A DNA stretch of 51,300 bases, taken from positions 1 to 51,300 of the forward strand of contig NZ_JAMXRZ010000012.1 in NCBI RefSeq assembly GCF_024124375.1. Direction: 5' to 3'. Source of the DNA: Klenkia sp. PcliD-1-E. GTDB taxonomy: Bacteria; Actinomycetota; Actinomycetes; Mycobacteriales; Geodermatophilaceae. This document shows, in pieces, positions 12,577 through 48,470 of the stretch. The stretch's first letter is position 1, and each line of letters begins with the position of its first letter. The translations under genes and the position numbers were made by a program. The notes below the pieces were generated by a model, which saw only the letters and a program-made list of their open reading frames with translations, was not told the DNA's origin and ran no database searches.

Positions 12577-13413
12577 TCAGGCGAGGGCGAGGGTGGCGCG
12601 GGCCCGGCGGGCGACCGCCTCGTCCAGCAGCGTCCCGTCGGCGCCGACCGCCACCCCGGGGCTGGCCTCCAGGCGGGCGAGGACCTCCCGGGCGGCGGCG
12701 ACCTCCTCCGGGGCCGGCCGGCAGACCCGCTCGACCACCTCGACCTGGGCGGGGTGGATGCAGGCCCGCCCCCGGAAGCCGAGGGCCACCAGCCGCCGCG
12801 TCTCGGCCTCGAAGGCGGCGAGGTCGCGGAACACGGTCGACACCGCGGCCGGGGGCGGCGCGATCCCGGCGGCGGCCGACGCCAGCACCACCGAGGAGCG
12901 GGCCAGCAGCAGCTCGGCGCCGTCCGGACCGGGCGTGACGCCGAGGTCGGCGGCCAGGTCGACCTCGCCGAGCTGCAGGCAGCGCACCCGCGGCCCGCCG
13001 GCCAGCGCGGGCGCGGCGAGCACCCCGGCAGCGCTCTCCACCAGCGGGCTCACACCCAGGGTGCACGGCGCCCGGCCGGTGGCCTCCTCGGCGGCGGACA
13101 GCTGGTCGTGCACGCGCTCCAGCAGCGCCCGCGTGGACGCCTTCGGCAGCAGCACGCCGGTGAGCCGGGCACCCCGGGCCACCGCGGCGACGTCGTCGGC
13201 ACCCCGCTGCCCGGTGCCCACCCGGACCCAGACCTGGGTGTCGGTGGCCGGTCCGGCCAGCCAGTCGACGACGGCGGCGCGGGCGTCGTCCTTGCCGGCC
13301 GGGGGGACGGCGTCCTCCAGGTCCAGGACGACGGCGCCCGCCCCGGTGGCCACGGCCTTGTCGAAGCGGTCGGGCCGGTCCCCGGGTACGTAGAGCCAGG
13401 ACCGCACGGTCAC
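12577..13413 (-). CDS. HpcH/HpaI aldolase / CitE-like acyl-CoA lyase
   Basis: A 278-residue CitE-like lyase of the HpcH/HpaI TIM-barrel family, which splits malyl-, methylmalyl- or citramalyl-CoA type thioesters. The start RSWLYVPGDRPDRFDKA is the family signature. Then come VLDLEDAVPP, the metal-binding PLVESAAGV and LQLGEVDLAADLG, and the FRGRACIHPAQ block. The GTG overlaps the acyl-CoA dehydrogenase stop (GTGA). It is last in a four-gene operon with MaoC hydratase, CoA-transferase and acyl-CoA dehydrogenase. This grouping resembles Mycobacterium tuberculosis Rv2498c-Rv2500c, where the CitE homologue works on citramalyl-CoA. The likely reaction is cleavage of citramalyl- or beta-methylmalyl-CoA. 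Confidence 0.92.
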   Translation of the reverse strand: MTVRSWLYVPGDRPDRFDKAVATGAGAVVLDLEDAVPPAGKDDARAAVVDWLAGPATDTQVWVRVGTGQRGADDVAAVARGARLTGVLLPKASTRALLERVHDQLSAAEEATGRAPCTLGVSPLVESAAGVLAAPALAGGPRVRCLQLGEVDLAADLGVTPGPDGAELLLARSSVVLASAAAGIAPPPAAVSTVFRDLAAFEAETRRLVALGFRGRACIHPAQVEVVERVCRPAPEEVAAAREVLARLEASPGVAVGADGTLLDEAVARRARATLALA

Positions 13414-14573
13414 CCGACGACCGTCTTCCCCGCGACCAGGGACTTCGCGATGACGGTGCGCAGCACGTCGTTGGTGCCCTCGCCGATGGCCATCAGCGGG
13501 GCGTCGCGGTAGAGCCGCTCGACGACGAACTCGGTGGAGTAGCCGTAGCCGCCGTGGATGCGCATGGCCTCCAGCGACAGCGACAGCGCGGTCTCCGAGG
13601 CGAAGACCTTGGCCATGCCGGACTCGGCGTCCACCCGCTTGCCGGCGTCGGCCTGGGAGGCGGCCCAGTAGGTGAGCAGCCTTGCTGCCTGCAGCTGGGT
13701 GGCCATCTCGGCGAGCTTGAGCGCGATGGCCTGGAACTCGGCGATCGGGTGGCCGAACGCCTCGCGCTCGCCGGCGTACTTCAGCGCTGCGTCGTAGGCG
13801 GCCTGCGCGACGCCGACCGAACGGCCGGCGATGTTGAGCCGGCCGATCTCCAGCCCGGACAGCGCCTGCTGCATGCCGCGGCCCTCGACCCCGCCGAGCA
13901 CGGCGTCCACCGGCACCCGGACGTCGACCAGGTTGATCTCGCAGGACTCGGTGCCCTTGTAGCCGAGCTTGCCCAGGTCGCGGCTGACCTCGAAGCCGGG
14001 GGTGTCGGTGGGGACCAGCAGCAGCGACATGCCGCGGTGCCGGGGCTGCGCGTCCGGGTCGGTCTTGACCAGGACGGGCAGGACGTCGGCGTGCCGGGCG
14101 TTGGTGATCCAGGTCTTGGTGCCGTTGACGACGTAGTGGTCGCCGTCGCGCACGGCCCGGGTGGCGATGCCCTGCAGGTCGGTGCCGGCGCCGGGCTCGG
14201 TGAGGCCCACCCCGGTGCGCCACTCTCCGGTGGCCAGCTTGGGCAGGTAGTGCTGCTTCTGCTCGTCGGTCCCGTGCTTGGCGATCATCCAGGCGGACAG
14301 CCCGTGGCTGCCGAGGATGCCGGCGATGCCCATCCAGCCGCGGCTGATCTCCTCGTAGACCAGCGTGAAGCTGACCATGTCCAGGGCCAGGCCGCCGTAC
14401 TCCTCGGGCGTGGTGAGCCCGAACAGGCCGAGGGCCTTGAGGTGGTCGACGATCTCGGTCGGGTAGCGCCCGGTGCGCTCCCACTCCGAGGCCACCGGCA
14501 CGATCTCGCGGTCGACGAAGCGCCGCAGCGTCTGCTGGAAGTCGCGCTGTTCCTCGGTGAGGGTGAAGTCCAC
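13410..14573 (-). CDS. acyl-CoA dehydrogenase
   Basis: A 387-residue FAD enzyme that puts a double bond alpha-beta into an acyl-CoA. Visible blocks are the N-terminal helical domain (MDFTLTEEQRDFQQTLRRF), the FAD-binding GVGLTEPGAGTDLQGI and WITNARHADVL strands, and the C-terminal helical domain with IHGGYGYSTEF. The probable catalytic base is Glu365 in IGEGTND. The GTG start is three bases after the CoA-transferase stop. In this operon the substrate is probably a CoA-activated branched diacid such as methylsuccinyl-CoA, giving mesaconyl-CoA for the MaoC hydratase. It is shorter than typical methylsuccinyl-CoA dehydrogenases of the ethylmalonyl-CoA pathway (about 550 residues), so a glutaryl- or isovaleryl-type substrate is an alternative. 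Confidence 0.93.
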   Translation of the reverse strand: MDFTLTEEQRDFQQTLRRFVDREIVPVASEWERTGRYPTEIVDHLKALGLFGLTTPEEYGGLALDMVSFTLVYEEISRGWMGIAGILGSHGLSAWMIAKHGTDEQKQHYLPKLATGEWRTGVGLTEPGAGTDLQGIATRAVRDGDHYVVNGTKTWITNARHADVLPVLVKTDPDAQPRHRGMSLLLVPTDTPGFEVSRDLGKLGYKGTESCEINLVDVRVPVDAVLGGVEGRGMQQALSGLEIGRLNIAGRSVGVAQAAYDAALKYAGEREAFGHPIAEFQAIALKLAEMATQLQAARLLTYWAASQADAGKRVDAESGMAKVFASETALSLSLEAMRIHGGYGYSTEFVVERLYRDAPLMAIGEGTNDVLRTVIAKSLVAGKTVVG

Positions 14574-14576
14574 GGG

Positions 14577-15782
14577 TCAGCTCCCCTGCTGTCCGAACGC
14601 GCCTGCGGCCTCGAGCTCGGCCACGCGCTCGGCCGAGTAGCCGAGCAGGTCGCGGGTGATGCGGTCCTGGTGCTCGTTGCGGTGCGGGGCCCGGCGGTGG
14701 TCGGTGCGCGGCTCGCCGAAGCGGACCGGGCTGCCCACCTGCTTCACGGTGCCCCAGTGCGGGTGCTCGGTCTCCAGCAGCAGTCCTCGGGCGGCGGCCT
14801 GCGGGTCGGCCAGGGCCTGGCCGACGTCGTTGATCGGGGACGACGGCACCCCGGCGGCGCGCAGCTGCGCCATCCAGTGCTCCACCGTGTCGGTGCGGAA
14901 CGCCTCCTTCAGCTGCGGCAGCAGGGCGTCGCGGTGGCGGTCGCGAAGCGCGAAGGTGGCGAACCGCCCGTCGTCCCCGAGGTCGGGCCGACCGAGGACC
15001 GCGACCAGGCGCTGCCAGAACTTCTCCTTGGCGCAGCCGACGACCAGCCAGCCGTCGGAGGCCTCGAACGCCTGGAACGGCACCAGCGAGGGGTGCGCGG
15101 AGTCCTTCGTGCGGACCGGTTCGTACCCCGCCGTCATCGCCCACGTCGCCGGGTAGGTCAGCAGCGAGACGGCGGTGTCGTAGAGCGAGACGTCGCAGTC
15201 GCCGCCGACCCCGTCCCGCCGGGCGGCGTGCAGGCCGGCGAGCAGGCTGAGCGCGGCGACGAACCCGCTGGAGAAGTCGACGAGGGACAGCCCGGTCTTG
15301 GTGGGCGGGCCGCCGGGGTCGCCGGTGAGGCTCATCCACCCGGCGATGCCCTGCAGCACGTAGTCGTAGCCGGGCTCGGCCTGCCGGGGCCCGGTCATGC
15401 CGAAGCCGGTGAGGCTGCAGCAGACGATCGCCGGGTTGAGGTGGGCGAGGTCGGCGTACCGGATGCCGATCTTGGCGGGGACGTCGCCGCGCAGGTTGGA
15501 CCAGACGGCGTCGCTGGTGCGCACCAGGTCCTCGAACACCGCCCGGCCGGCGGCGGTGGAGATGTCGAGGGACAGGCTCTGCTTGTTGCGGTTGAAGGTC
15601 TCGTAGAACAGCGAGTCCTCGCCGTGCACGTAGGGCGGGACGTAGCGGCCGATGTCGCCGCCGGTGCGCGGGTCCTCGATCTTGATGACCTCGGCGCCCA
15701 GGTCGGCCAGGTGCACGCTGCCGAAGGGGCCGGCGCCGTACTGCTCGAGCGCGATGACCCGGACGTCCTCCAGCGGCCTCAT
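14577..15782 (-). CDS. CaiB/BaiF family CoA-transferase (first copy)
   Basis: A 401-residue class III CoA-transferase, moving CoA from a donor such as succinyl-CoA onto a carboxylic acid. The N-terminal block MRPLEDVRVIALEQYGAGPF and the LGAEVIKIEDP strand are typical. The catalytic Asp is probably Asp202 in SLYDTAV. The ATG overlaps the MaoC gene stop (ATGA). It would activate the diacid for the downstream acyl-CoA dehydrogenase, or itaconate/mesaconate for the hydratase. Human and bacterial relatives act on C5 diacids (itaconate, glutarate, HMG), which fits, but specificity is inferred. Confidence 0.92.
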   Translation of the reverse strand: MRPLEDVRVIALEQYGAGPFGSVHLADLGAEVIKIEDPRTGGDIGRYVPPYVHGEDSLFYETFNRNKQSLSLDISTAAGRAVFEDLVRTSDAVWSNLRGDVPAKIGIRYADLAHLNPAIVCCSLTGFGMTGPRQAEPGYDYVLQGIAGWMSLTGDPGGPPTKTGLSLVDFSSGFVAALSLLAGLHAARRDGVGGDCDVSLYDTAVSLLTYPATWAMTAGYEPVRTKDSAHPSLVPFQAFEASDGWLVVGCAKEKFWQRLVAVLGRPDLGDDGRFATFALRDRHRDALLPQLKEAFRTDTVEHWMAQLRAAGVPSSPINDVGQALADPQAAARGLLLETEHPHWGTVKQVGSPVRFGEPRTDHRRAPHRNEHQDRITRDLLGYSAERVAELEAAGAFGQQGS

Positions 15783-16300
15783 GCCATCGGCCCGGTCTTG
15801 GCCTCGGGGAAGTGGCCCTGCCCGATGCCGCTCTCCCGGGTGGCCACCATCACCGAGCGCTTGAACGAGATGCATTCGTCGCCGTCGGCGTTCAGCCCGC
15901 GGGTGACCATCGAGACGATGCCGGCGTACGGGCGGCTCTTCGAGGCGCGCAGCGCGGTGCAGAGGCTCTCGGCGTAGAGGGTGTCGCCGACGTAGACCGG
16001 GTGGGTCAGCTTCACGTCGGTCATCTCCAGGTTGGCGACCGCGTTCTGGCTCATGTCCAGCACGCTCAGGCCCAGCGTCAGCGCGATGGTCAGCCCGGAG
16101 TTGACGATCACCCGGCCCCCGGTGATCGGGTTCTGCGCGGCCAGGTGTGCGTTGACGTGCTGCTGGTTGGTGTTCATCGTCAGCATCGTCAGCCAGGTGT
16201 TGTCAGCCTCGGAGATCGTGCGGCCGAGCGGGTGCTGGTAGACGTCGCCGACGACGTAGTCCTCGAAGAACCGCCCCAGGACGGCGGGGTGCGTGGCCAT
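15779..16300 (-). CDS. MaoC-like enoyl-CoA (mesaconyl/itaconyl-CoA type) hydratase
   Basis: A 173-residue single hot-dog-fold hydratase. The block GRTISEADNTWLTMLTMNT followed by NQQHVN is the mesaconyl/itaconyl-CoA hydratase version of the MaoC motif, with the His of NQQHVN as likely catalytic residue. The ATG follows GGGAGG at seven bases. It is first of four coupled genes (hydratase, CoA-transferase, dehydrogenase, CitE lyase). Together they could take a C5 diacid through mesaconyl-CoA and citramalyl- or methylmalyl-CoA to two central metabolites. A 19-base motif shared with the WrbA/RutA-like cluster lies 28 bases upstream. Confidence 0.9.
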   Translation of the reverse strand: MATHPAVLGRFFEDYVVGDVYQHPLGRTISEADNTWLTMLTMNTNQQHVNAHLAAQNPITGGRVIVNSGLTIALTLGLSVLDMSQNAVANLEMTDVKLTHPVYVGDTLYAESLCTALRASKSRPYAGIVSMVTRGLNADGDECISFKRSVMVATRESGIGQGHFPEAKTGPMA

Positions 16301-16327
16301 GGATGTGCCTCCCTCGACAGCTGCACG

Positions 16328-16346
16328 CTAAATGTCTGATGATTCG
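16328..16346. promoter_or_regulatory. putative GntR operator, site 3 (inverted orientation)
   Basis: Read on the minus strand this is CGAATCATCAGACATTTAG, matching site 1 (19615) at 14 of 19 positions and site 2 (20878) at 14 of 19. It lies between the divergent MaoC operon and amidase gene, so one regulator could control both. It starts 52 bases before the preferred amidase start; the other sites have similar spacing. Confidence 0.5.
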
Positions 16347-16379
16347 GTGCGCAAGCCCCCTGCGACGTCTGGAGTGCCG

Positions 16380-17582
16380 GTGGACGACCACGTGGACGAC
16401 ACGGTGAACGCGGTCATCAGGTGGGTGGACCGACCCTCCGGCGACGGCCCGCTGGCCGGGGTCCGGGTGGGCGTCAAGGACAACGTGGACGTCGCCGGCG
16501 GGCCCACGACCTGCGCGTCCGCCTTCTTCGCCGCGCGCGTTCCGGACCGTGATGCCGAGGTGGTGCGGCGGTTGTCGGACGCCGGAGCGGCGGTGGTGGC
16601 GACGCTGAACCTGAGCGAGTTCGCCGTCGGGGTGACCACCCAGAACTCCGCGGCCGGGCCGTGCCGCAACCCGTGGGACCCCGCACGCATCCCGGGCGGG
16701 TCGAGCGGCGGGTCGGGGGCCGCGGTGGCGGCGGGGATCGTCGACCTGGCCCTGGGCACCGACACCGGCGGGTCGATCCGGCTGCCGGCATCCGCGTGCG
16801 GGGTGGTCGGGCTGCGGCCCACGCACGGCTCGATCCCGCTGGACGGAGTCTTCCCGGTCTGCGACGACGTGGACACCGTCGGCCCCCTGGCGCGAACCGT
16901 CGACCTGGTCGCACGGGCGCAGCGGGTGCTCACCGGGTCGTCGGCCGACCTGCCCGCTCCCGCCGCCCCCCGGCGGATCGGCACACCGGTGCAGTTGCTG
17001 GTGGACATCGACCCGGGTGTGCAGCAGGTGGTGGACGCCGCGATGGCCGCCTTCGGCGCCGAGGTGGTGCCGGTGGAGGTCGAGGGCCTGCTCGACGCGC
17101 AGGACATCGTCTACACGCTGGTCTACGCCGACCTGGCCCGCATCCACGCTTCCCGGCTCGCGTCAGACCCCGAGCGGTTCCACCCCGACAGCCTGGTGCG
17201 GATCGGCCTGGGCCGGGACATAACCGCGGAGCAGCGGGCCGCCGCCGTCGAGGCCCGGCGGGCACTGCAGTCCCGCATCAGCGCCGCGATGGACGGCGTC
17301 GACCTCGTCCTCACCCCGACGCTGCCCGTCGACGTCCCCCGCGCCGACCCCGACGACGTGCTGCGGGTGTCGCGGCGGCTGGGGCAGCTGACCTACCCCT
17401 GGTCCCTGCACGCCGGCCCCACGCTGGCGCTGCCGGTCGGCTTCCACCCGGTGTCGGGGATGCCGGTCGGCGTCCAGCTCACTGCCCCCGAGGACGCCGA
17501 GGACGTCCTGTTCGCCGCCGGCCTCTGGTACCAGCAGCAGACGGACTGGCACACCCGCCGCCCACCGGCCCCTTCCTGTTGA
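16380..17582 (+). CDS. amidase-signature family amidase
   Basis: A 400-residue amidase-signature enzyme, hydrolysing an amide or imide to acid plus ammonia. The Ser-cisSer-Lys triad is visible: Lys33 (VGVKDNVDV), Ser108/Ser109 in GGSSGGSGAAVAAG, nucleophile Ser132 in DTGGSIRLPAS. I chose the GTG at 16380 because GGAG lies five bases upstream. The ATG at 16332 (16 residues longer) has no ribosome site and would sit inside the operator-like motif. It is divergent from the CoA-pathway operon and probably under the same regulator. It is shorter than GatA and has no partner subunits, so it is a catabolic amidase. Its stop codon is made by the left arm of a repeat element. Confidence 0.9.
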   Translation: MDDHVDDTVNAVIRWVDRPSGDGPLAGVRVGVKDNVDVAGGPTTCASAFFAARVPDRDAEVVRRLSDAGAAVVATLNLSEFAVGVTTQNSAAGPCRNPWDPARIPGGSSGGSGAAVAAGIVDLALGTDTGGSIRLPASACGVVGLRPTHGSIPLDGVFPVCDDVDTVGPLARTVDLVARAQRVLTGSSADLPAPAAPRRIGTPVQLLVDIDPGVQQVVDAAMAAFGAEVVPVEVEGLLDAQDIVYTLVYADLARIHASRLASDPERFHPDSLVRIGLGRDITAEQRAAAVEARRALQSRISAAMDGVDLVLTPTLPVDVPRADPDDVLRVSRRLGQLTYPWSLHAGPTLALPVGFHPVSGMPVGVQLTAPEDAEDVLFAAGLWYQQQTDWHTRRPPAPSC

Positions 17583-17650
17583 TCATCGCCATCCGCAGGT
17601 CGGACACGCCAGCCGGCGGCGCGTCTCAGCTGCACCTGACGATGATCAAC
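17578..17650. repeat. family B palindromic repeat, copy 1 (73 bp)
   Basis: Terminal inverted arms GTTGATCATCGCCA and TGACGATGATCAAC differ at one pair. A copy of exactly the same length is at 32427: 54 of 73 positions agree by eye, with the ends almost identical and the centre variable. TGA of the left arm is the amidase stop codon. The centre can fold further (GCAG/CTGC), so the element may be a terminator or a small mobile repeat. Confidence 0.8.
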
Positions 17651-17662
17651 AAGGCGGGAGGC

Positions 17663-17676
17663 GTTTCCGCGGAAAC
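17663..17676. promoter_or_regulatory. 14-bp perfect palindrome
   Basis: GTTTCCGCGGAAAC lies between the family B repeat and the end of the VOC protein gene, where two genes converge. It could be a small hairpin or a protein site. No function can be assigned. Confidence 0.25.
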
Positions 17677-17685
17677 AGGTGCGGT

Positions 17686-18726
17686 TCAGCCGGCGCGGAC
17701 GACCAGCTCGTTGCCCTCGGGGTCGGCGACCCGCTCGCCGCCCAGCAGCCGCCCGCCCGCCGCCTCCGCCGTCGCGAGCCGCTCCTCAACGGCGTCGGCC
17801 GGGACGGTCAACACGAACGAGGTGCGGTTGCGCTGGCGCCGACGGTCCTCCTCGGCCGGGTCCAGGGGCTGGAACGCGACGACGGGGCCGACCCGGTGCA
17901 GGTCGTGGATCTCGGTCAGCCCGGGCCGGGGGTCGGCGACGTAGCCCAGCGCCGCCGCCCAGAAGGCCTGCACGGCCGCGACGTCGGCGGCGTCGAGGAA
18001 CAGCTGCACGAACACCGGGGCCGCCGGGTCGGGCACCGCACCCAGGTCACGGGCTGCGGCCTGGATCCGCGAGGCCACGGCGAGGACGTCGGCAGCGGGG
18101 GCGACGACGCCGTCCTCCCACTGGTCCTTGCCGCTGTCCAGGACGACGACGCCGGGCCGCAGGTCGATGCCCAGCGGCAGGTCGCCGACCAGCTCGGCGA
18201 CGGCCGCGGCCAGCCGGGCGGGCTCCGGCGTGCGGTAGACGGCCATGGCGCTGAACACGGCGTGCCAGTCCTCGGCACCCTCGCCGAGCGGCCCGCCGGG
18301 CACCAGGTCGACCTCGTTGCCCTCCGGGTCCGCGTGCCGGACGCCGTACGGCCCGGCTCCGTCGCCCAGACCGAGCTGATCGACCACCCCGGCTGGGCGG
18401 ACGACGTCCAGGTGCACCCGCTGGCGCAGCGACCGGTGCTCGGCGGAGCGGACGACCCGGACGCCGGGGCCACGGCGGAGCGGGTCGGGCAGGTCGCCGT
18501 CCGGGCCGGGTGCGCGACCGAGGACGCGGCCCCAGAACCCGGCGACGGCGGCGGGGTCCGCCGCCTCGACGACGACGTCGAGGCGCTGCAAGCCGGCCAC
18601 CCGGACCCCGGTGGCCCGCACCTCGACCTCGGCGGTGGGGTCCCGGGCGAGCACGCGGCCGGCGAGGTCGGCCGCGGCCGGCAGGGAGGGTGCGGCGGAC
18701 CATTCCGTCACGGCGCCGTCTGCCAT
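17686..18726 (-). CDS. tandem VOC (glyoxalase/bleomycin-resistance fold) protein
   Basis: A 346-residue protein with two vicinal-oxygen-chelate domains. The first spans about residues 45-155 (LQRLDVVVEAADPAAVAGFWGRVLG up to HADPEGNEVDLVPGG), the second about 225-346 (VFVQLFLDAADVAAVQAFWAAALGY up to VADPEGNELVVRAG). Each domain ends in the DPEGNE motif. The N-terminal 45 residues and the linker (160-220) look like weak partial repeats of pterin-dehydratase-like segments often fused to such proteins. Metal ligands are not clear in each half, so it may be a binding protein. ATG 18726 is six bases after TACGGT, suggesting a leaderless mRNA. Confidence 0.82.
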   Translation of the reverse strand: MADGAVTEWSAAPSLPAAADLAGRVLARDPTAEVEVRATGVRVAGLQRLDVVVEAADPAAVAGFWGRVLGRAPGPDGDLPDPLRRGPGVRVVRSAEHRSLRQRVHLDVVRPAGVVDQLGLGDGAGPYGVRHADPEGNEVDLVPGGPLGEGAEDWHAVFSAMAVYRTPEPARLAAAVAELVGDLPLGIDLRPGVVVLDSGKDQWEDGVVAPAADVLAVASRIQAAARDLGAVPDPAAPVFVQLFLDAADVAAVQAFWAAALGYVADPRPGLTEIHDLHRVGPVVAFQPLDPAEEDRRRQRNRTSFVLTVPADAVEERLATAEAAGGRLLGGERVADPEGNELVVRAG

Positions 18727-18732
18727 CCCGGC

Positions 18733-18738
18733 ACCGTA
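18733..18738 (-). promoter_or_regulatory. candidate -10 box of the VOC protein gene (leaderless)
   Basis: TACGGT on the minus strand is followed after six bases by the ATG at 18726, with no Shine-Dalgarno sequence between. Confidence 0.4.
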
Positions 18739-18780
18739 GTGCCCAGCGGACCGCGGCGAGAGCTGGCTGCAACCCATGAC

Positions 18781-18830
18781 TGTGCAGTTCTCGGGGTCCG
18801 ACGACCCGGATCGGCCCCGCGAACTGCACA
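18781..18830. terminator. 50-bp inverted repeat after the GntR gene (possible terminator)
   Basis: Arms TGTGCAGTTCTCGGGGTCCGA and the matching right arm ending GCGAACTGCACA pair with one mismatch and one bulge. It lies 21 bases downstream of the GntR gene's stop and before the VOC gene on the same strand. It is a strong hairpin but lacks a T-tract, as is usual in GC-rich actinobacteria. It might belong to another repeat family, since only one copy is seen here. Confidence 0.55.
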
Positions 18831-18851
18831 CTCGTGCGCCCCGGGGCGCGC

Positions 18852-19553
18852 TCAGCTGCGGCTGAGGCGGTCCATCTGCAGGTAGGCGCCGGTCAGGTGG
18901 TCCAGGTGCCGGCGCATGGCGGTGACGGCGCCGTCGGCGTCGCGGGCGGCGACCAGGTCGTGCAGCTCCGCGTGGTCGTCGGCCACGCAGGCCCAGAAGC
19001 CGTCGGGGGCGTGGTCGCGGCCGAACCGCGTCGCGAGCACCCGGAACAGCGGCGCGGTGATGACCTCCAGCAGCGGGTTGCCGGTGGCCCGCAGCAGAAC
19101 CAGGTGGAAGTCCTGGTTCGCCGCGTACGTCGCCTCGCCGACCGCGGTGCCGGGGTCGAACTCCGCCCGCCGCAGGTCGTCGAGCTGCTCGTCGGTGCGG
19201 TGCCGGGCCGCCTCGCCCGCCGCGGGCACCTCCAGCAGGTGCCGCAGCGACATCAGCTGCCCGACCGTCACCCGCTCGGCGGCCGCCATCAGCGCCACCC
19301 CGGTCTCCAGGTGCGCGGACATGTGCGCCGCGGTCGGCACGCTGACGAAGCTGCCCCCGGACACCCCGCGGGTGGTCTGGATCAGGTCCTGCGACGCCAG
19401 CGAGCGCAGCGCCTCGCGCACCGTGGACCGGCCGACGCCGAACTCCGCCGACAGCTCCTGCTCGTTGGGCAGCCGCTCCCCCGGCACGAGCTCGCCGGAC
19501 AGGATCCGGGCGCGGATGCTGCCCGCCAGCACGGCGTACGCAGGGCCGGTCAC
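18852..19553 (-). CDS. GntR-family (FadR/FCD-type) transcriptional regulator
   Basis: A 233-residue regulator with a winged helix-turn-helix at about residues 4-70 (LPNEQELSAEFGVGRSTVREALRSL is spread over its core). The all-helical FCD ligand domain has the metal-type residues of the family (RHLLEVPAAGEAARH, NQDFHLVLLRATGN, DDHAELHDLV). FCD regulators usually sense a small organic acid. It starts at GTG 19553 and is divergent from the WrbA gene. The 19-base motif between them, repeated before MmgE/PrpD and before the MaoC/amidase pair, is its likely operator. It probably represses the catabolic genes on both sides until the substrate or an acid intermediate appears. Confidence 0.93.
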   Translation of the reverse strand: MTGPAYAVLAGSIRARILSGELVPGERLPNEQELSAEFGVGRSTVREALRSLASQDLIQTTRGVSGGSFVSVPTAAHMSAHLETGVALMAAAERVTVGQLMSLRHLLEVPAAGEAARHRTDEQLDDLRRAEFDPGTAVGEATYAANQDFHLVLLRATGNPLLEVITAPLFRVLATRFGRDHAPDGFWACVADDHAELHDLVAARDADGAVTAMRRHLDHLTGAYLQMDRLSRS

Positions 19554-19614
19554 CCTGCGCAGTCTGCCAGCGGAACCGGTTCACACGGTGTTGACACCGC
19601 AGGCGTTGACGAGG

Positions 19615-19633
19615 CCAATCGTCTGACACTTGG
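19615..19633. promoter_or_regulatory. putative GntR operator, site 1 (near-palindrome)
   Basis: CCAATCGTCTGACACTTGG is a near-palindrome (CCAA-N2-GTC-T-GAC-N2-TTGG) in the gap between the GntR gene and the WrbA gene. FCD-type operators often have the form GT-N3-AC at the core, as here (GTCTGAC). A possible promoter TTGACG (19606) to TTGGAT (19630) overlaps it, which would suit repression. Confidence 0.55.
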
Positions 19634-19663
19634 ATGGGGGCCCCGAGCAGAGGAGCTCCCCCG

Positions 19664-20278
19664 GTGCCCGTCACCCCCCGCGTCGCCGTCGTCTTCTACT
19701 CCGCCACCGGCAACCTGGCCGCGATGGCCGAGGCGATCGGCCGGGGCGCCGAGGAGACCGGCGCCGAGGTCCGGCTGCGCATCGTCCCCGAGCTCGCCCC
19801 CGCCGAGGCGGTCGCGGCCAACCCGAAGTGGCAGGCCTTCGTCGACGAGGCGAGGTACGAGACCGCCACCCTCGACGACCTCGAGTGGGCCAACGGCATC
19901 GCTCTCGGGAGCCCCACCCGCTTCGGCCTGCCCGCCGGCCAGCTCAAGGAGTTCCTCGACACCACCGGCGGCCTCTGGTTCCAGGGAAAGCTGGCCGACA
20001 AGGTCGGCACCGCCTTCACCAGCGCCAGCACCGGCCACGGCGGCCTGGAGTCGACGATCCTGGCGATGAACAACGTGCTCTACCACTGGGGCTCGCTCGT
20101 GCTGCCCCTCGGCTATGGCGAGCGGCACCTGATGAAGGAGTCGGGCAACCCCTACGGCGGCTCGTTCGTCTCCCGCTCCGGCGCCGCCCCCGACGACACC
20201 GCGCTGGAGGCCTGCCGGCTGCAGGGCGTCCGCCTCGCCCGGTTCGCCGGCGCCGTCGCCACCGGGCTCGCGGGGTGA
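19664..20278 (+). CDS. WrbA-like NAD(P)H:quinone oxidoreductase / flavodoxin-fold protein
   Basis: A 204-residue flavodoxin-fold protein. The FMN phosphate loop YSATGNLAAMAEAI opens the protein. GSPTRFGLPAGQLKEFLDTTG and the FTSASTGHGGLESTI block are the WrbA signature. WrbA enzymes use NAD(P)H and FMN to reduce quinones. Here it might instead supply reduced flavin to the RutA-like monooxygenase three genes on, since no RutF-type reductase is present. I chose GTG 19664 because AGAGGAG lies upstream; the in-frame ATG at 19634 overlaps the operator region. Its stop overlaps the next GTG by four bases. Confidence 0.9.
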   Translation: MPVTPRVAVVFYSATGNLAAMAEAIGRGAEETGAEVRLRIVPELAPAEAVAANPKWQAFVDEARYETATLDDLEWANGIALGSPTRFGLPAGQLKEFLDTTGGLWFQGKLADKVGTAFTSASTGHGGLESTILAMNNVLYHWGSLVLPLGYGERHLMKESGNPYGGSFVSRSGAAPDDTALEACRLQGVRLARFAGAVATGLAG

Positions 20279-20880
20279 GCGCCGAGGCGGTCCGGGTCGG
20301 CGTCGGCCGGCTGGACACCACCGAGCGCCCCGGCCTGGTGCTGGTCGACTGCCAGAACCTCTTCACCCTGGATCCAGCGGTCGACGAGGCCGTGGCGGCC
20401 TGCGGTCGCGCGGCCGCGGCGGCCCGGGAGGCCGGCGTCCCCGTCGTCTGGCTGCGCGTCGTCTTCGACGAGGGCGAGGACCTCGGCCCGGTCTGGACGG
20501 CGAAGGCCCCCGCGCTCACCCAGCTGCGCCCCGGCGCGGAGCTGGCCGGGTTCGACCCTCGCGTCGGCTACGTCGAGGGCGAGCCCGTCGTCACCAAGAA
20601 GCGCGCCTCGGGCTTCGTGCGCACCGACCTCGACGACCTGCTGCACGACCTGGACGTGCACACCCTCGCCGTCGCCGGGTTCACCACCGCCGGCTGCGTG
20701 CGGGCCACCGTCGTCGACGCCGCCTCGCTGGACTACGCCCCCGTCGTCCTGGCCGACGCCGTCGCCGACCGGTCGAGGCAGATCCACGACGCAGCCCTGG
20801 TCGACCTGGACGCCCGGTACGCCGACGTCGTCCCCGACGGGGCGGCCTGGTTCGGGGCGCTGGGGACTTCCGCACGCTGA
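20275..20880 (+). CDS. isochorismatase-family cysteine hydrolase
   Basis: A 201-residue hydrolase with the Asp-Lys-Cys triad: Asp25 (LVLVDCQNLF), Lys in VVTKKRASGF, Cys141 (TTAGCVRATVVDA). The family includes N-carbamoylsarcosine amidase, nicotinamidase and RutB, the ureidoacrylate hydrolase that follows RutA in uracil breakdown. It lies in the same run of genes as a RutA-like enzyme, so a RutB-like role on an amide or carbamoyl product is attractive. It overlaps the WrbA gene (GTGA). Its TGA at 20878 lies inside the second operator-like site, so the genes after it may have an extra promoter. Confidence 0.9.
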   Translation: MSAEAVRVGVGRLDTTERPGLVLVDCQNLFTLDPAVDEAVAACGRAAAAAREAGVPVVWLRVVFDEGEDLGPVWTAKAPALTQLRPGAELAGFDPRVGYVEGEPVVTKKRASGFVRTDLDDLLHDLDVHTLAVAGFTTAGCVRATVVDAASLDYAPVVLADAVADRSRQIHDAALVDLDARYADVVPDGAAWFGALGTSAR

Positions 20881-20896
20881 ATCGTCTGACATATGG
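20878..20896. promoter_or_regulatory. putative GntR operator, site 2
   Basis: TGAATCGTCTGACATATGG matches site 1 (19615) at 15 of 19 positions. TATGGT (20892-20897) could be a -10 box overlapped by the site. It lies 24 bases before the MmgE/PrpD start and suggests an internal promoter for that gene and the RutA-like gene. Confidence 0.5.
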
Positions 20897-20919
20897 TCGC
20901 GGTCACAGGAGGGAGCCCC

Positions 20920-22290
20920 ATGAGCATCGCCCGACAGGTCGCCGACGTCGTCGCCCGCACCACCTGGGACGACGTCCCCACCCCCGTGCTGGACCGCGCA
21001 CGCCACCTCGTCCTCGACGCCGTCGGCCTGGCCTTCGCCTCGTCCGCGCACCCGTTCGCCGACGTCGCCGCCGACGCCCTTGCCACCTTCGGCACCGGCG
21101 ACGTCCCCACCCTGGGCTCGAAGACCCGGCTGTCCGCGCGGGACGCCGCCGTGCTCAACGGCGTGCTGGTGCACGGGCTGGACTTCGACGACACCCACAT
21201 CGGCGCCGTCACCCACGTCTCCGCCGCGGCCCTGCCCGCGGCGATCAGCGCCGCCGTCGCGGCCGACGCGTCAACGCAGGACCTGCTGCTGGGCTACCTG
21301 CTCGGCGTCGAGGTCTCCGCCCGCGTCGGCCTGGCCGGTGCCGGCGCGTTCCACGACCTGGGCTTCCACCCCACCGCGGTGGCCGGGGCGTTCGGTTCCG
21401 CCGTCGCCGCCGGGAAGATCGCCGGGCTGGACGCCGACCAGCTGGTCGCCGCGCAGGGCGTGGTCGGCTCGATGGCCGCCGGGCTGCTGGAGTTCCTCGA
21501 GGACGGCTCCTGGACCAAGCGGCTGCACCCCGGCTGGGCGGCGCAGAGCGGCATCACCGCGGCCACGTTCGCGAAGGCCGGCTGGAGCGGGCCCGAGGCG
21601 GTCTACGAGGGCCGGTTCGGGCTGTTCGCCAGCCACCTGGCCGGCCGGGACACCCACCCCGACCTGGTCGCCGACGACCTCGGCGAGCGGTGGGAGACCC
21701 CGGAGACGGCGGTCAAGCCCTACCCGGTCTGCCACTTCGCGCACGCCTTCGCCGACGCCGTCCTGCTGCTGCGCGCCGAGCACGGGCTGACCGCCGCCGA
21801 CGTCGCGTCGGTGCGGTGCGCGATCCACCCGGTGCCCGGCAAGGTGGTCTGCGAGCCCGCCGAGGCCAAGTGGGCGCCGCGCGACGAGTACGACGCCAAG
21901 TTCTCACTGCCCTACATCGTCTCCACCGCGCTGGCCCGCGGCCGGTTCACCCTCGCCGAGCTCTCGGACACCGCGCTGGCAGACCCCGAGGTGCTGGCGC
22001 TGGCCCGCAAGGTCGAGGTCGTCCCGGACGACGAGAGCGCCTTCCCGCAGGCCTACTCCGGCTGGGTGCAGGTCACCACCACCGACGGCCGCGTGCTCAC
22101 CCACCGCGAGCAGGTCAACCGCGGCCACGCCGACCGGCCGCTCACCGACGCCGACGTCGTCGCCAAGTACCGGGAGTCGATGGCCCCGGTCGCCGACGAG
22201 GCCACCACCGAGCGGGTGCTCGCCGCCGTCCTGTCGCTGGGGGACGGCGGTTCCGCCCGCGACTTCGCCGAGGCCTGCGCAGCAGGCTGA
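20920..22290 (+). CDS. MmgE/PrpD family protein
   Basis: A 456-residue MmgE/PrpD-fold enzyme. The family covers 2-methylcitrate dehydratase and cis-aconitate decarboxylase, the itaconate-forming enzyme. Family blocks are visible: VLNGVLVHGLDFDDTH near residue 80, GFHPTAVAGAFGSA, KRLHPGWAAQSGI, and VKPYPVCHFAHAF. AGGAGGGAG before the ATG at 20920 fixes the start; the ATG at 20893 sits in the operator. With a CoA-transferase, MaoC hydratase and CitE lyase under the same probable regulator, an itaconate- or methylcitrate-like diacid step is plausible. No dedicated methylcitrate synthase is present, so a standard propionate pathway is unlikely. Confidence 0.9.
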   Translation: MSIARQVADVVARTTWDDVPTPVLDRARHLVLDAVGLAFASSAHPFADVAADALATFGTGDVPTLGSKTRLSARDAAVLNGVLVHGLDFDDTHIGAVTHVSAAALPAAISAAVAADASTQDLLLGYLLGVEVSARVGLAGAGAFHDLGFHPTAVAGAFGSAVAAGKIAGLDADQLVAAQGVVGSMAAGLLEFLEDGSWTKRLHPGWAAQSGITAATFAKAGWSGPEAVYEGRFGLFASHLAGRDTHPDLVADDLGERWETPETAVKPYPVCHFAHAFADAVLLLRAEHGLTAADVASVRCAIHPVPGKVVCEPAEAKWAPRDEYDAKFSLPYIVSTALARGRFTLAELSDTALADPEVLALARKVEVVPDDESAFPQAYSGWVQVTTTDGRVLTHREQVNRGHADRPLTDADVVAKYRESMAPVADEATTERVLAAVLSLGDGGSARDFAEACAAG

Positions 22291-22323
22291 GACACCCACC
22301 TTCCAGAGCAGAGGAGCACGGTC

Positions 22324-23376
22324 ATGGACTTCGGCGTCTTCATCCCGATCGGGAACAACGGCTGGCTGATCAGCGAGAACGCACCCCAGTACATGCCGAG
22401 CTTCGAGCTCAACAAGCGCATCGTGCAGGAGGCCGAGGCGCAGGACTTCGCCTTCGCGCTGTCGATGATCAAGCTGCGCGGGTTCGGCGGGAAGACCGAG
22501 TTCTGGGACCACAACCTGGAGTCCTTCACCCTCATGGCCGGCCTCGCCGCCGTCACGGAGAGGATCAAGCTCTACGCGTCGACCGCCGTCCTCACCCTGC
22601 CCCCGGCCCTGGTGGCCCGGATGGCCACGACGATCGACTCGATCGCGCCGGGCCGGTTCGGCGTCAACATCGTGTCGGGCTGGGCGTCGGGCGAGTACGC
22701 GCAGATGGGGCTGTGGCCCGGCGACGACTACTTCGGCTACCGCTACGACTACTCCACCGAGTACGTCCAGGTGCTGCGCGACCTCTGGGAGACCGGGACC
22801 TGCGACCTGGACGGGCAGTACTTCCAGATGACCGACTGCAAGCTGTCCCCGCAGCCCAGCGGGCACGTGGACATCGTCTGCGCCGGCCAGAGCGAGCGCG
22901 GCATGCGGTTCTGCGCCGAGCACGGCGACTACAACTTCATCCTCTCGCCGGGCATCAACACCCCCGAGACCTACCGGGAGCCCACCGAGAAGCTGGCCGC
23001 CGCGGCGGCGAAGACCGGCCGGGACGTCGGCTCGCTGCCGCTGTTCATGGCGATCATCGCCGACACCGACGAGGAGGCGCAGGCCAAGTGGAAGAGCTAC
23101 CACGACGGCGCTGACCTGGCGGCCCTGGGCTACATGAGCGACGAGGGCGCGAAGGACACGACCGCCGACTCCGGGGGCACCGCGCGGACGATCAACCTGC
23201 CCGAGGGCGCGGTCAACTTCAACATGGCCACCCTCGTCGGTTCGCCGGAGACCGTCGCCCGGCAGATCGACGAGGTCGCGAAGATGCCCGGCGTGAAGGG
23301 GATGATGTTCACCTTCGACGACTTCGAGCAGGGCGTGAAGACCTTCGGCGAGAAGGTCAAGCCGCTGCTCGGCTGA
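22324..23376 (+). CDS. RutA-like flavin-dependent amide/pyrimidine monooxygenase (LLM family)
   Basis: A 350-residue luciferase-like TIM-barrel enzyme closely resembling E. coli RutA. Matching blocks include [63 protein letters not shown] (Asn115) and WPGDDYF. RutA uses FMNH2 and oxygen to break the amide bond of uracil. The residue aligning with RutA's Thr of the O2 pocket appears to be Ser86, from memory of RutA. AGAGGAG precedes the ATG. No RutC, RutD or RutF homologues are nearby; instead there are WrbA, an isochorismatase-family hydrolase, PrpD and a PEP-mutase-family enzyme. The substrate may therefore be a different cyclic amide or imide. Confidence 0.92.
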
Positions 23377-23384
23377 TCGCCGGC

Positions 23385-23414
23385 GGGGCTCCCGTCCCCC
23401 CGTGCGGGAGCCCC
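23385..23414 (+). terminator. hairpin between RutA-like and PEP-mutase-family genes
   Basis: GGGGCTCCCG (23385-23394) pairs perfectly with CGGGAGCCCC (23405-23414) around a 10-base C-rich loop, nine bases after the RutA-like stop. There is no T-tract. It probably reduces read-through into the last gene of the cluster or stabilises the upstream message. Confidence 0.6.
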
Positions 23415-23439
23415 GTCGGCCCACCTGGAAGGACCCCCT

Positions 23440-24336
23440 GTGACCTCGTTCGTCGCCCCCCGCCCGAACCCCCGCGCCCGGCTGCGCGAGCTGCTGGCCG
23501 CCGCCCAGGACACCGGCCGTCCGCTGGTCGCACCCGGCGCCTACGACGCGCTCGGCGCCCGGCTGGTGCAGCAGGCCGGGTTCGACGTCGTCTACATGAC
23601 CGGCTTCGGGACGTCGGCCTCGCTGCTCGGCCGACCCGACATCGGGCTGCTGGGCGGTGCCGAGATGACCGACAACGCCCGCCGGATGGCGCAGGCGGTC
23701 GAGGTCCCGCTCATCGCCGACGCCGACACCGGCTACGGCAACGCGCTCAACGTCGTCCGCACCGTGCGGGAGTACGAGCAGGCCGGCGTCGGCGGGCTGC
23801 AGCTGGAGGACCAGGTCTCGCCCAAGCGCTGCGGCCACATGACCGGCAAGGCCGTGGTGGACGTCGAGGAGGCCGTGGCCAAGGTCCGCGCCGCGGTGGC
23901 CGCGCGCACCGACCCCGACCTGGTGGTCATCGCCCGCACCGACGTGGCGCAGGTCGAGGGCACCCGGGCGGCCGTCGACCGGGCGCTGCGGTTCGCCGAC
24001 GCCGGCGCCGACGTCCTGTTCGTCGAGGCCCCCCGCACCGCCGAGGACGTCGAGCTGGTCGCCACCGAGCTGAAGGGCCACCACCTGCTCTTCAACTGGG
24101 TCGAGGGCGGGGCGACCGAGGGCCTGACCATGGACACCGTCGCCGAGCTGGGCTTCTCGCTGGTGCTGTTCCCGATCAGCACCCTGTTGGCCGCGACCCG
24201 GGCGATGCAGATGGCGCTGGAGACCTTGCAGCGGACGTCGTCCACCGAGGGCGCCCCGATGGGCGACTTCGGCGGGTTCCTGGAGACCATCGGCCTGCCG
24301 GGGATCCGGGAGGACGAGGCCCGCTTCGCCGTCTGA
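23440..24336 (+). CDS. isocitrate lyase / PEP mutase family lyase
   Basis: A 298-residue PEP mutase/isocitrate-lyase superfamily member. The Mg site DADTGYG and the loop KRCGH (SPKRCGHMTGK) point to C-C lyase activity, as in methylisocitrate lyase and 2,3-dimethylmalate lyase, rather than phosphonate mutase. The start GTG 23440 follows GGAAGGA. A likely reaction is cleavage of a 2- or 3-methylmalate-type acid to pyruvate plus a second acid. It lies 63 bases after the RutA-like gene, past a hairpin, and is probably part of the same unit. Oxaloacetate decarboxylase-type activity is an alternative. Confidence 0.9.
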   Translation: MTSFVAPRPNPRARLRELLAAAQDTGRPLVAPGAYDALGARLVQQAGFDVVYMTGFGTSASLLGRPDIGLLGGAEMTDNARRMAQAVEVPLIADADTGYGNALNVVRTVREYEQAGVGGLQLEDQVSPKRCGHMTGKAVVDVEEAVAKVRAAVAARTDPDLVVIARTDVAQVEGTRAAVDRALRFADAGADVLFVEAPRTAEDVELVATELKGHHLLFNWVEGGATEGLTMDTVAELGFSLVLFPISTLLAATRAMQMALETLQRTSSTEGAPMGDFGGFLETIGLPGIREDEARFAV

Positions 24337-47987: not shown

Positions 47988-48470
47988 GTGCTGGCCGAGG
48001 CGTTCCGCGAGGTGATGGCCGGGGTCGCCACCCCGGTCTCGGTCATCACCGCGGTGTCGGCCGACGGCGTCCCGCACGGGACGACGGTGTCGGCGTTCGC
48101 GTCGCTGTCGATGGACCCGCCGATGGTGCTGGTCTCCCTCGACCGCGGGTCGGACCTGCTGGCCCTGGTCCGGGACACCGGCCGGTTCGGCGTGAACGTG
48201 CTCGGCTCCACCCAGTCGGCGCTGGCGCTGTCGTTCGCCCGCAAGGGCCCGGACAAGTTCGCCGCCGTCGACTGGGTGCCCGACTCCGGCCTGCCCCGGC
48301 TGCCCGGCGCGCCCGGGTGGCTGGCCTGCGACGTGGAGTCCCTGGTCGAGGGCGGGGACCACGTCGTCGCCCTCGGCCTGGTCACCGCGGCCGACACCGT
48401 CGACGGCGCCCCGCTCACCTACCACTCCCGGGTCTTCGGCACCCACGCCGCACTGGAGGCCACCCCGTGA
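47988..48470 (+). CDS. flavin reductase (HpaC/split-barrel family)
   Basis: A 160-residue split-barrel flavin reductase. FREVMAGVATPVSVITA near the N-terminus, THGTTVSAFASLSMDPPMVLVSL and the HHYHSR-like end (LTYHSRVFGTH) show the family. It makes FMNH2 with NAD(P)H and passes it freely to a partner monooxygenase. The GTG start is three bases after the aldehyde dehydrogenase stop, and its stop overlaps the RibBA start. It is the natural partner of the LLM enzyme at 49950. Confidence 0.92.
   Translation: MLAEAFREVMAGVATPVSVITAVSADGVPHGTTVSAFASLSMDPPMVLVSLDRGSDLLALVRDTGRFGVNVLGSTQSALALSFARKGPDKFAAVDWVPDSGLPRLPGAPGWLACDVESLVEGGDHVVALGLVTAADTVDGAPLTYHSRVFGTHAALEATP

What the first reader, a model, noticed from the sequence alone, without database searches (positions are those of the whole stretch)
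12577..24336. A GntR-controlled pathway combining a RutA-like oxygenase with CoA-dependent C5-diacid breakdown
Eleven genes flank and include a GntR/FCD regulator. One side encodes MaoC hydratase, CaiB CoA-transferase, acyl-CoA dehydrogenase, CitE lyase and an amidase. The other encodes WrbA, an isochorismatase-family hydrolase, MmgE/PrpD, a RutA-like flavin monooxygenase and a PEP-mutase-family lyase. RutA-type enzymes cut amide bonds of rings, amidases finish that, and the CoA genes fit mesaconyl- or itaconyl-CoA to citramalyl-CoA to pyruvate and acetyl-CoA. I know of no described pathway with this gene set. A cyclic imide, lactam or substituted pyrimidine yielding a branched C5 diacid is my guess.
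Basis: partly seen in the sequence, partly recalled or inferred. Interest (0 to 1): 0.82.

Follow-up and report, generated by a model that had tools for sequence, protein, structure and literature searches.

The report
Oxygenase-fed branched-diacid breakdown regulon
Soil actinobacteria carry a shared set of genes that seems to open a nitrogen-containing ring and burn the branched acid it releases; relatives swap the oxygen-using ring opener for an unrelated ATP-using one, which points to a cyclic amide as the still unknown food.

Summary
The eleven genes are as described, plus an unmentioned VOC gene, in a Klenkia genome, and look like one regulon. In 8 Klenkia genomes and a Modestobacter-like MAG both halves share a contig, 1.9-15 kb apart. 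A rare operator-like motif (35 sites in 8 genomes) sits at three fixed places per cluster: before MaoC/amidase, FCD/WrbA and PrpD. Pseudonocardia and Actinomycetospora have a similar set with 83-88% identical RutA. The CoA half plus PrpD works like the known itaconate/methylsuccinate operon but is a separate lineage: 31-37% identity, no MaoC match, no Glu/Tyr signature in PrpD. RutA passes the RutA cut-off but falls outside the rut-operon clade; RutB and RutF do not reach their cut-offs. RutA (33) and HyuA/HyuB (8) never share a locus among 78; P. acidicola and Rhodococcus carry Hyu on the same CoA core, suggesting two unrelated openers of the same kind of cyclic amide. Best reading: RutA opens a cyclic amide or imide, nitrogen is removed, and a branched succinate is degraded through CoA esters. 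Substrate unidentified; no enzyme tested.

The parts
12577..13413 (-). CitE-type lyase (last gene of the CoA operon)
   Evidence: PF03328 125 bits; RipC/Ccl model 163 bits, under its cut-off of 375
13410..14573 (-). acyl-CoA dehydrogenase
   Evidence: Pfam acyl-CoA dehydrogenase domains; overlaps CitE by 4 bases
14577..15782 (-). CaiB-type class III CoA-transferase
   Evidence: PF02515 402 bits; best NCBIfam models succinate-glutarate and succinyl-CoA:mesaconate CoA-transferase, both under cut-off
15779..16300 (-). MaoC hydratase
   Evidence: RipB/Ich model 149 bits (cut-off 340), mesaconyl-CoA hydratase PF19315 65 bits
16330..16340 (+). operator-like site AAATGTCTGAT in the MaoC/amidase promoter region
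   Evidence: used to derive the pattern
16332..17582 (+). amidase-signature amidase (real start probably near 16380)
   Evidence: PF01425 287 bits; GGSSGGS, VGVKD and DTGGS present
17686..18456 (-). VOC/glyoxalase-like gene, probably a passenger
   Evidence: PF18029; found in 2 of the 8 stretches L012-L019 (L013, L018), missing in L019 where the set is contiguous; L012 and L016 do not reach the left half
18852..19553 (-). GntR/FCD regulator of the set
   Evidence: PF00392 and PF07729; a match to it lies in 42 of 54 core loci
19617..19627 (+). operator-like site AATCGTCTGAC in the FCD/WrbA promoter region
   Evidence: used to derive the pattern
19634..20278 (+). WrbA/FMN-reductase family protein, possible flavin reductase
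   Evidence: TIGR01755 over cut-off; also in the P. dioxanivorans plasmid cluster L040
20275..20880 (+). isochorismatase-family amidohydrolase (start inferred, overlapping the WrbA stop)
   Evidence: PF00857 128 bits; LVLVD, TKK, GFTTAGC present; RutB model 49 bits, cut-off 378
20880..20890 (+). operator-like site AATCGTCTGAC directly before PrpD
   Evidence: this site was not used to derive the pattern
20893..22290 (+). MmgE/PrpD protein of a subgroup distinct from methylsuccinate isomerase
   Evidence: best solved relative IDS epimerase; H94, D97, H108, H159, K209, K275 kept, no Tyr at 153-155
22324..23376 (+). RutA-like flavin oxygenase outside the rut-operon clade
   Evidence: TIGR03612 584 bits; 61% identical to E. 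coli RutA; tree and residues
23440..24336 (+). PEP-mutase/ICL-family protein, probably a C-C lyase (KRCGH motif; meaning of the motif recalled)
   Evidence: PF13714; prpB model 254 bits, cut-off 354; motif

Best explanation
It is an FCD-controlled catabolic regulon for a cyclic amide, most likely a substituted succinimide/maleimide-type imide or a similar lactam. RutA, with reduced flavin possibly supplied by WrbA or another reductase, opens the ring oxidatively at an amide bond. The amidase and/or the isochorismatase-family enzyme removes the remaining amide nitrogen and leaves a branched (2-substituted) succinate. PrpD moves a proton on this free diacid (epimerase-like, or a hydratase). CaiB makes the CoA ester, the dehydrogenase introduces the double bond, MaoC adds water and CitE splits the product into an acyl-CoA and a 2-oxo acid such as pyruvate. 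In Klenkia the PEP-mutase-family lyase may offer a second, CoA-free cleavage. Shown here: gene content, conservation, the shared motif, the RutA/Hyu exchange, subgroup placement. Inferred: every reaction, their order, the regulator-motif pairing and the substrate class.
For: Halves conserved together in 9 of 11 genomes given, CaiB on the RutA contig each time. Motif AAHBGTCTGAY: 35 sites in 8 Klenkia genomes, 24 of them the three cluster places, 1 site for the reversed control pattern. Palindrome AACGTCWGACGTT in 53 actinobacterial loci: 89 sites against a mean of 29.3 in dinucleotide shuffles; 87 of the 89 lie within about 260 bases before a gene of the set (MaoC, FCD, CitE, MFS, WrbA, PrpD, RutA); 26 of 33 RutA loci have one before PrpD or RutA. 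RutA (33) and Hyu (8) loci do not overlap in 78 loci. HyuA of L111 and L062 and HyuB of L111 best match caprolactamase subunits, under cut-off. CaiB+ACAD tree: Klenkia and the Modestobacter-like MAG (RutA) group with Rhodococcus (Hyu), 99/99; P. acidicola (HyuA) groups with two RutA-bearing Pseudonocardia, 98/94, and its genome has no RutA above 41% identity. Second exchange on another background: ABC transporter parts 51-60% identical between alphaproteobacterial RutA loci (L095, L099) and Hyu loci (L077, L082), isochorismatase 65% between L099 and L082.
Against: The CoA+PrpD core occurs without RutA or Hyu in 21 of 54 core loci (one of them, L042, is probably a contig break), so it has other inputs. 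In Saccharopolyspora dendranthemae an 81% identical RutA lies on its own, apart from the core and without the motif in 18 kb. 7 of 33 RutA loci show no motif before PrpD or RutA, the Modestobacter-like MAG among them. HyuA/HyuB relatives include acetophenone carboxylase, so Hyu does not prove an amide. RutA passes the RutA cut-off, so a pyrimidine remains possible. Rhodococcus PrpD is only 41% identical and falls in a side group. No transcript or enzyme data.
Confidence: 0.55

Rival explanations
1. The RutA module is a pyrimidine (uracil/thymine or substituted uracil) degrader with isochorismatase as RutB substitute, merely placed under the same regulator; the CoA half separately degrades itaconate/methylsuccinate-type acids.
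For: RutA scores over the RutA equivalog cut-off and keeps L65, N134, V136, W139 and F224. Other loci with RutA outside the rut operon combine it with isochorismatase, amidase or a nitrilase-like protein.
Against: No RutB or RutF over cut-off in 8 of 8 Klenkia genomes. RutA outside the rut-operon clade, T105 replaced by S and positions 225, 226 and 228 changed. Shared motif and RutA/Hyu exchange on the CoA core.
Confidence: 0.25
2. The cluster is a plain itaconate/mesaconate/methylsuccinate operon; amidase, isochorismatase and RutA are later additions that only scavenge nitrogen from amides of these acids or unrelated compounds.
For: Same five enzyme classes as PA0878-PA0883 (PMC9875883, PMC12290011, passages); 21 of 54 core loci have neither RutA nor Hyu.
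Against: Only 31-37% identity to the P. aeruginosa-type proteins and no MaoC match there; PrpD lacks the Glu/Tyr signature. An amidase match in 37 of 54 core loci.
Confidence: 0.15
3. The Klenkia right half (isochorismatase, PrpD, RutA, PEP-mutase-family lyase) is a complete CoA-free route: imide to maleate-type diacid, hydration by PrpD, cleavage to pyruvate and an acid; the CoA half then handles that acid.
For: PrpD of this clade also pairs with the lyase where no CoA core was found in the stretch held: L058, L082 (with Hyu and isochorismatase) and L083. KRCGH motif.
Against: The lyase was not found at any Pseudonocardia/Actinomycetospora RutA locus; the closest solved PrpD relative is an epimerase.
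Confidence: 0.15

Closest known systems
Itaconate/methylsuccinate operon PA0878-PA0886 of Pseudomonas aeruginosa and its C. necator counterpart (de Witt 2023, Gonner 2025)
   Same: CoA-transferase, acyl-CoA dehydrogenase, hydratase, MmgE/PrpD and CitE-type lyase in one operon
   Different: 31-37% identity protein by protein to two clusters of that type, no detectable match to the window MaoC, different PrpD active-site signature; FCD regulator, amidase and RutA added
Rut pathway (rutABCDEFG), E. coli
   Same: RutA family by curated score, most flavin/oxygen-site residues kept
   Different: No RutB or RutF over cut-off in 8 Klenkia genomes; rutC, rutD, rutE and rutG were sought only in the window and fetched loci (none in the window); other clade, T105S
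Caprolactamase and related HyuA/HyuB ATP-dependent amide hydrolases
   Same: Stands in place of RutA on the same CoA core in Rhodococcus, Amycolatopsis and P. acidicola
   Different: Unrelated protein family; no match within the Klenkia loci
IDS epimerase (MmgE/PrpD family)
   Same: Closest solved relative of the window PrpD; H85, D88, H99, H150, K198, K266 equivalents kept
   Different: Tyr145 aligns with His154

Membership tests
RutA (NCBIfam TIGR03612) | score over the curated cut-off | tested here: met
   584.1 against 498.3 bits
RutA (NCBIfam TIGR03612) | groups with RutA of rut operons | tested here: not met
   3 rut-operon RutAs form their own group, 100/99, next to a Roseomonas RutA; window lies outside (10 of 17 inner branches are drawn open there)
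RutA (NCBIfam TIGR03612) | oxygen-site residues L65, T105, N134, V136, F224 (positions named in PMC10005588 and PMC7662398) | tested here: inconclusive
   four kept, T105 is Ser; the +19 numbering offset is inferred from these residues
Rut pathway | RutB and RutF present | tested here: not met
   0 of 8 Klenkia genomes over cut-off for either; best under-cut-off scores 134 of 378 (RutB) and 178 of 255 bits (RutF, one genome, G077)
(S)-(R)-methylsuccinate isomerase (PA0881 type) | Glu91 and Tyr148 signature, and grouping with that type | tested here: not met
   Asp97, and F-H-D at 153-155 with no Tyr (the alignment is uncertain in this loop); separate group, 98/97, with long-branch warnings. 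The PA0881-type rows were recognised by signature, two of them (L123, L130) also by their neighbours, not by name
P. aeruginosa-type itaconate/methylsuccinate cluster | orthologous five-gene set | tested here: not met
   same classes but 31-37% identity and no MaoC match at E 1e-5 in L150 and L152
Y. pestis-type Rip operon | RipB and RipC over curated cut-off | tested here: not met
   149 of 340 and 163 of 375 bits
Methylisocitrate lyase PrpB | score over the curated cut-off | tested here: not met
   254.5 of 354.4 bits
Branched-diacid CoA pathway (works like) | activity on a 2-substituted succinate | not testable with these tools
   needs purified enzymes

The most novel reading that the evidence does not exclude
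A hitherto undescribed catabolic pathway for alkyl-substituted cyclic imides, for example maleimides released when chlorophyll or heme breaks down (methylethylmaleimide, hematinic acid, citraconimide). A RutA subfamily that is an imide/lactam oxygenase instead of a pyrimidine oxygenase opens the ring and is functionally exchangeable with ATP-dependent caprolactamase-like HyuA/HyuB. Such imides would be one natural source of the branched succinates whose origin in soil is open. The tetrapyrrole part is a guess (perhaps 0.1); the probability given is for an imide/lactam oxygenase feeding a branched succinate.
Probability: 0.35. Interest if true: 0.82.

Novelty: new variant of a known kind. Interest (0 to 1): 0.66.

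Why it matters
RutA is known, as far as I recall and saw in the papers read, as a uracil/thymine ring opener; here a clade of it is tied by gene order, shared motif and exchange with an ATP-driven amide hydrolase to CoA-dependent diacid breakdown. That makes the substrate range of flavin-N5-peroxide chemistry directly testable and offers a source for environmental methylsuccinate-like acids, whose origin Gonner et al. (PMC12290011, section 14) call unclear until recently. It also warns that genes annotated rutA need not belong to pyrimidine use.

Tried and rejected
Rejected: that the two halves are chance neighbours. Rejected: that PrpD is the PA0881-type methylsuccinate isomerase; I first took it for one and dropped this. 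Rejected: that the PEP-mutase-family lyase, VOC gene or WrbA are core. Rejected as evidence: a heme-oxygenase-like gene (named from its sequence by eye, no profile search) near the Yinghuangia core, found in no other locus held.

Led nowhere: NCBIfam RipC searches did not reach the P. aeruginosa-type operon; the genes around the core in Yinghuangia, Pandoraea, SAR324, Saccharopolyspora L064 and Nonomuraea gave no further ring opener that I could recognise by eye. Literature: searches with RutA among the terms or cyclic imide/hydantoinase listed no title or abstract describing this gene set; the library holds open-licence papers only. Structure prediction was not run.

Dropped before counts: L110 (R. 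pyridinivorans SB3094, IS256 insertion within the set) was fetched but left out; of 5 Rhodococcus plasmid hits (H60-H64) I fetched 3 and counted 2. L106, L107, L108, L111 and L112 were added by hand to the 73 loci, so the 78 are not a random sample; L109, L113, L114 and L156 were fetched and not counted. Weak LLM matches to the RutA query (L040 45%, L042 28%, L064 29%, L108 26%) were not counted as RutA; L042's genome has an 86% RutA at the end of another contig, probably a contig break. The ORF lists come from a simple GC-position script and contain false frames.
Full report
WHAT IS THERE. All eleven genes are present at the stated place and match the stated families. An additional VOC-like gene lies between amidase and regulator. 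In the left operon CitE/ACAD and CaiB/MaoC overlap by 4 bases and ACAD/CaiB lie 3 bases apart.

ARE THE HALVES ONE UNIT? In the family, 10 of 112 genomes have a RutA match at E 1e-60; 9 of these (8 of the 9 listed members of the genus, and G096 of another genus) are 85-100% identical. The ninth member is 73% complete. CaiB at 78% identity or more was found in 9 of 11 genomes given, each time on the RutA contig. From the coordinates the gap between CaiB and the regulator is 1.9-15.2 kb. In the Klenkia stretches read, the gap holds genes that differ between species. In G096 (L019, by length the contig of L028, a MAG named Modestobacter sp.) the set is contiguous: CitE-ACAD-CaiB-MaoC, amidase, FCD, isochorismatase-PrpD-RutA-lyase.

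SHARED MOTIF. Comparing the two promoter regions by eye gave the pattern AAHBGTCTGAY. In 8 Klenkia genomes it has 35 sites in all; 24 are three fixed places in each cluster, and the reversed control pattern has 1 site. Two of the three places were used to find the pattern; the one before PrpD was not. In the window itself the related pattern AATYGTCTGAY with up to one mismatch has 3 sites against 0.54 expected, and 3 of 100 shuffles reached 3, so the strength comes from rarity in whole genomes. Scanning 53 actinobacterial loci with the palindrome AACGTCWGACGTT (derived from sites upstream of the regulator) gave 89 sites. Single-base shuffles gave a mean of 11.8, dinucleotide-preserving shuffles 29.3, range 22-46 in 10. 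87 of the 89 sites lie within about 260 bases before (or up to 70 inside) the start of a gene of the set: before FCD in 33 loci, MaoC in 31, PrpD in 23, MFS in 14, RutA in 6. In 26 of 33 RutA loci a site lies before PrpD or RutA; where RutA comes first (for example L055, L056, L057, L086) it lies before RutA. The seven without one are L028, L029, L036, L038, L041, L052 and L066. No site at all was found in L052, L058, L059, L060, L080, L083 or L093. That the FCD protein binds these sites is inferred.

HOW WIDE IS IT? A scan with the PrpD alignment gave 73 loci, mapped together with five plasmid loci. Of 78 loci 54 have the CoA core (PrpD and CaiB with MaoC or ACAD). RutA is in 33 of 78, from Klenkia, the Modestobacter-like MAG, Pseudonocardia and Actinomycetospora, at 83-97% identity; 28 of these have the core in reach, and the other five are four Klenkia loci (L022-L025) whose flank ends before the left half and one 6-kb contig (L048). 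The Pseudonocardia and Actinomycetospora sets lack the lyase, all but one lack WrbA (L040, which has only a 45% RutA-like protein), and an isochorismatase match lies at L050 and L053 only. Amidase matches are in 37 of 54 core loci and regulator matches in 42 of 54. A second LLM oxygenase (F420-dependent subfamily model, under cut-off) is in 31 of 54. Pseudomonas, Stutzerimonas, Pandoraea and Azospirillum relatives carry the core with TRAP or MFS transporters.

THE EXCHANGE. Rhodococcus plasmids hold regulator-MaoC-CaiB-PrpD-ACAD-CitE with divergent HyuA, HyuB and amidase. In Amycolatopsis L062 and L067 HyuA, HyuB and amidase follow CitE on the same strand. Best NCBIfam matches are caprolactamase subunits: HyuA 582 (L111) and 596 bits (L062), HyuB 253 bits (L111), all under cut-offs of 1000. 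RutA and Hyu never share a locus (33, 8, 0 of 78); flanks are at most 10 kb for the 73 scan loci, so more distant copies would be missed. On a CaiB+ACAD tree Klenkia, the Modestobacter-like MAG and Rhodococcus form one group (99/99), and P. acidicola L049, which has HyuA, groups with two RutA-bearing Pseudonocardia (98/94). Its genome has no RutA better than 41%, and the two Amycolatopsis Hyu genomes have none at E 1e-70; of the 14 genomes searched there 5 had a match. In Alphaproteobacteria the same pair of enzymes alternates on another background: RutA loci of Palleronia and Rhizobium and Hyu loci L077 and L082 share transporter proteins (51-60%), and L099 and L082 an isochorismatase of 65% identity. 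Both families can spend energy, oxygen with reduced flavin or ATP, on opening a stable amide (general knowledge, recalled), so a cyclic amide is the simplest common substrate.

WHAT KIND OF RutA AND PrpD? RutA is 61% identical to E. coli RutA over 349 residues without gaps, yet the three rut-operon RutAs form a group of their own and the window does not join it. Several forks in that tree are weak. PrpD keeps six IDS-epimerase active-site residues but has Phe-His-Asp at 153-155 where IDS epimerase and PA0881 have a catalytic Tyr nearby (residue numbers from PMC12290011; the alignment of this loop is uncertain), and Asp97 where PA0881 has Glu. In two Pseudomonas genomes the protein with the Glu/Tyr signature sits in a PA0878-0883-like cluster whose proteins are 31-37% identical to those of the window. 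The window's set is therefore a parallel lineage; it may use methylsuccinate or a relative of it.

PAPERS. PMC12290011: outline with abstract, sections 13 and 14, and passages. PMC9875883, PMC10005588, PMC7662398: passages only. Others: search listings with starts of abstracts only.

VERDICT. It is a new variant built from known parts. The substrate, and hence the most interesting claim, is open.

Noticed in passing
L014 2419-11050, L012, L013, L015, L016, L017, L018 (between amidase and regulator): The space between the two halves looks like a variable insertion spot in Klenkia; it holds among others an 847-aa protein in L014 that reads like a SIR2-type protein, and a sugar-ABC/isomerase gene set in L012 and L013 (by eye).
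   Followed up: partly
L095, L098, L100 (Palleronia, Thioclava, Roseomonas plasmids): Genes annotated rutA without rutB-rutF in the stretch fetched, beside GntR and amidases or an ABC transporter; the annotation as pyrimidine use may mislead.
   Followed up: partly
L039 and L040: Pseudonocardia dioxanivorans CB1190 carries the set twice, on the chromosome and on plasmid pPSED01; the plasmid copy has WrbA and only a 45% RutA-like protein.
   Followed up: no
window 47994-48431: A RutF-like flavin reductase (61 bits, under cut-off) lies on the same contig and could supply reduced flavin.
   Followed up: no
L093 11984-12676: A protein that reads like a heme oxygenase, 1-2 kb downstream of the core in Yinghuangia; no match in the other loci held.
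   Followed up: yes
L147, L148, L149, L151: In four Pseudomonas stretches another PrpD subgroup (His-Asn motif) sits with two polysaccharide-deacetylase-like proteins, an argininosuccinate-lyase-like protein and an amino-acid ABC transporter (read by eye, no profile search).
   Followed up: no
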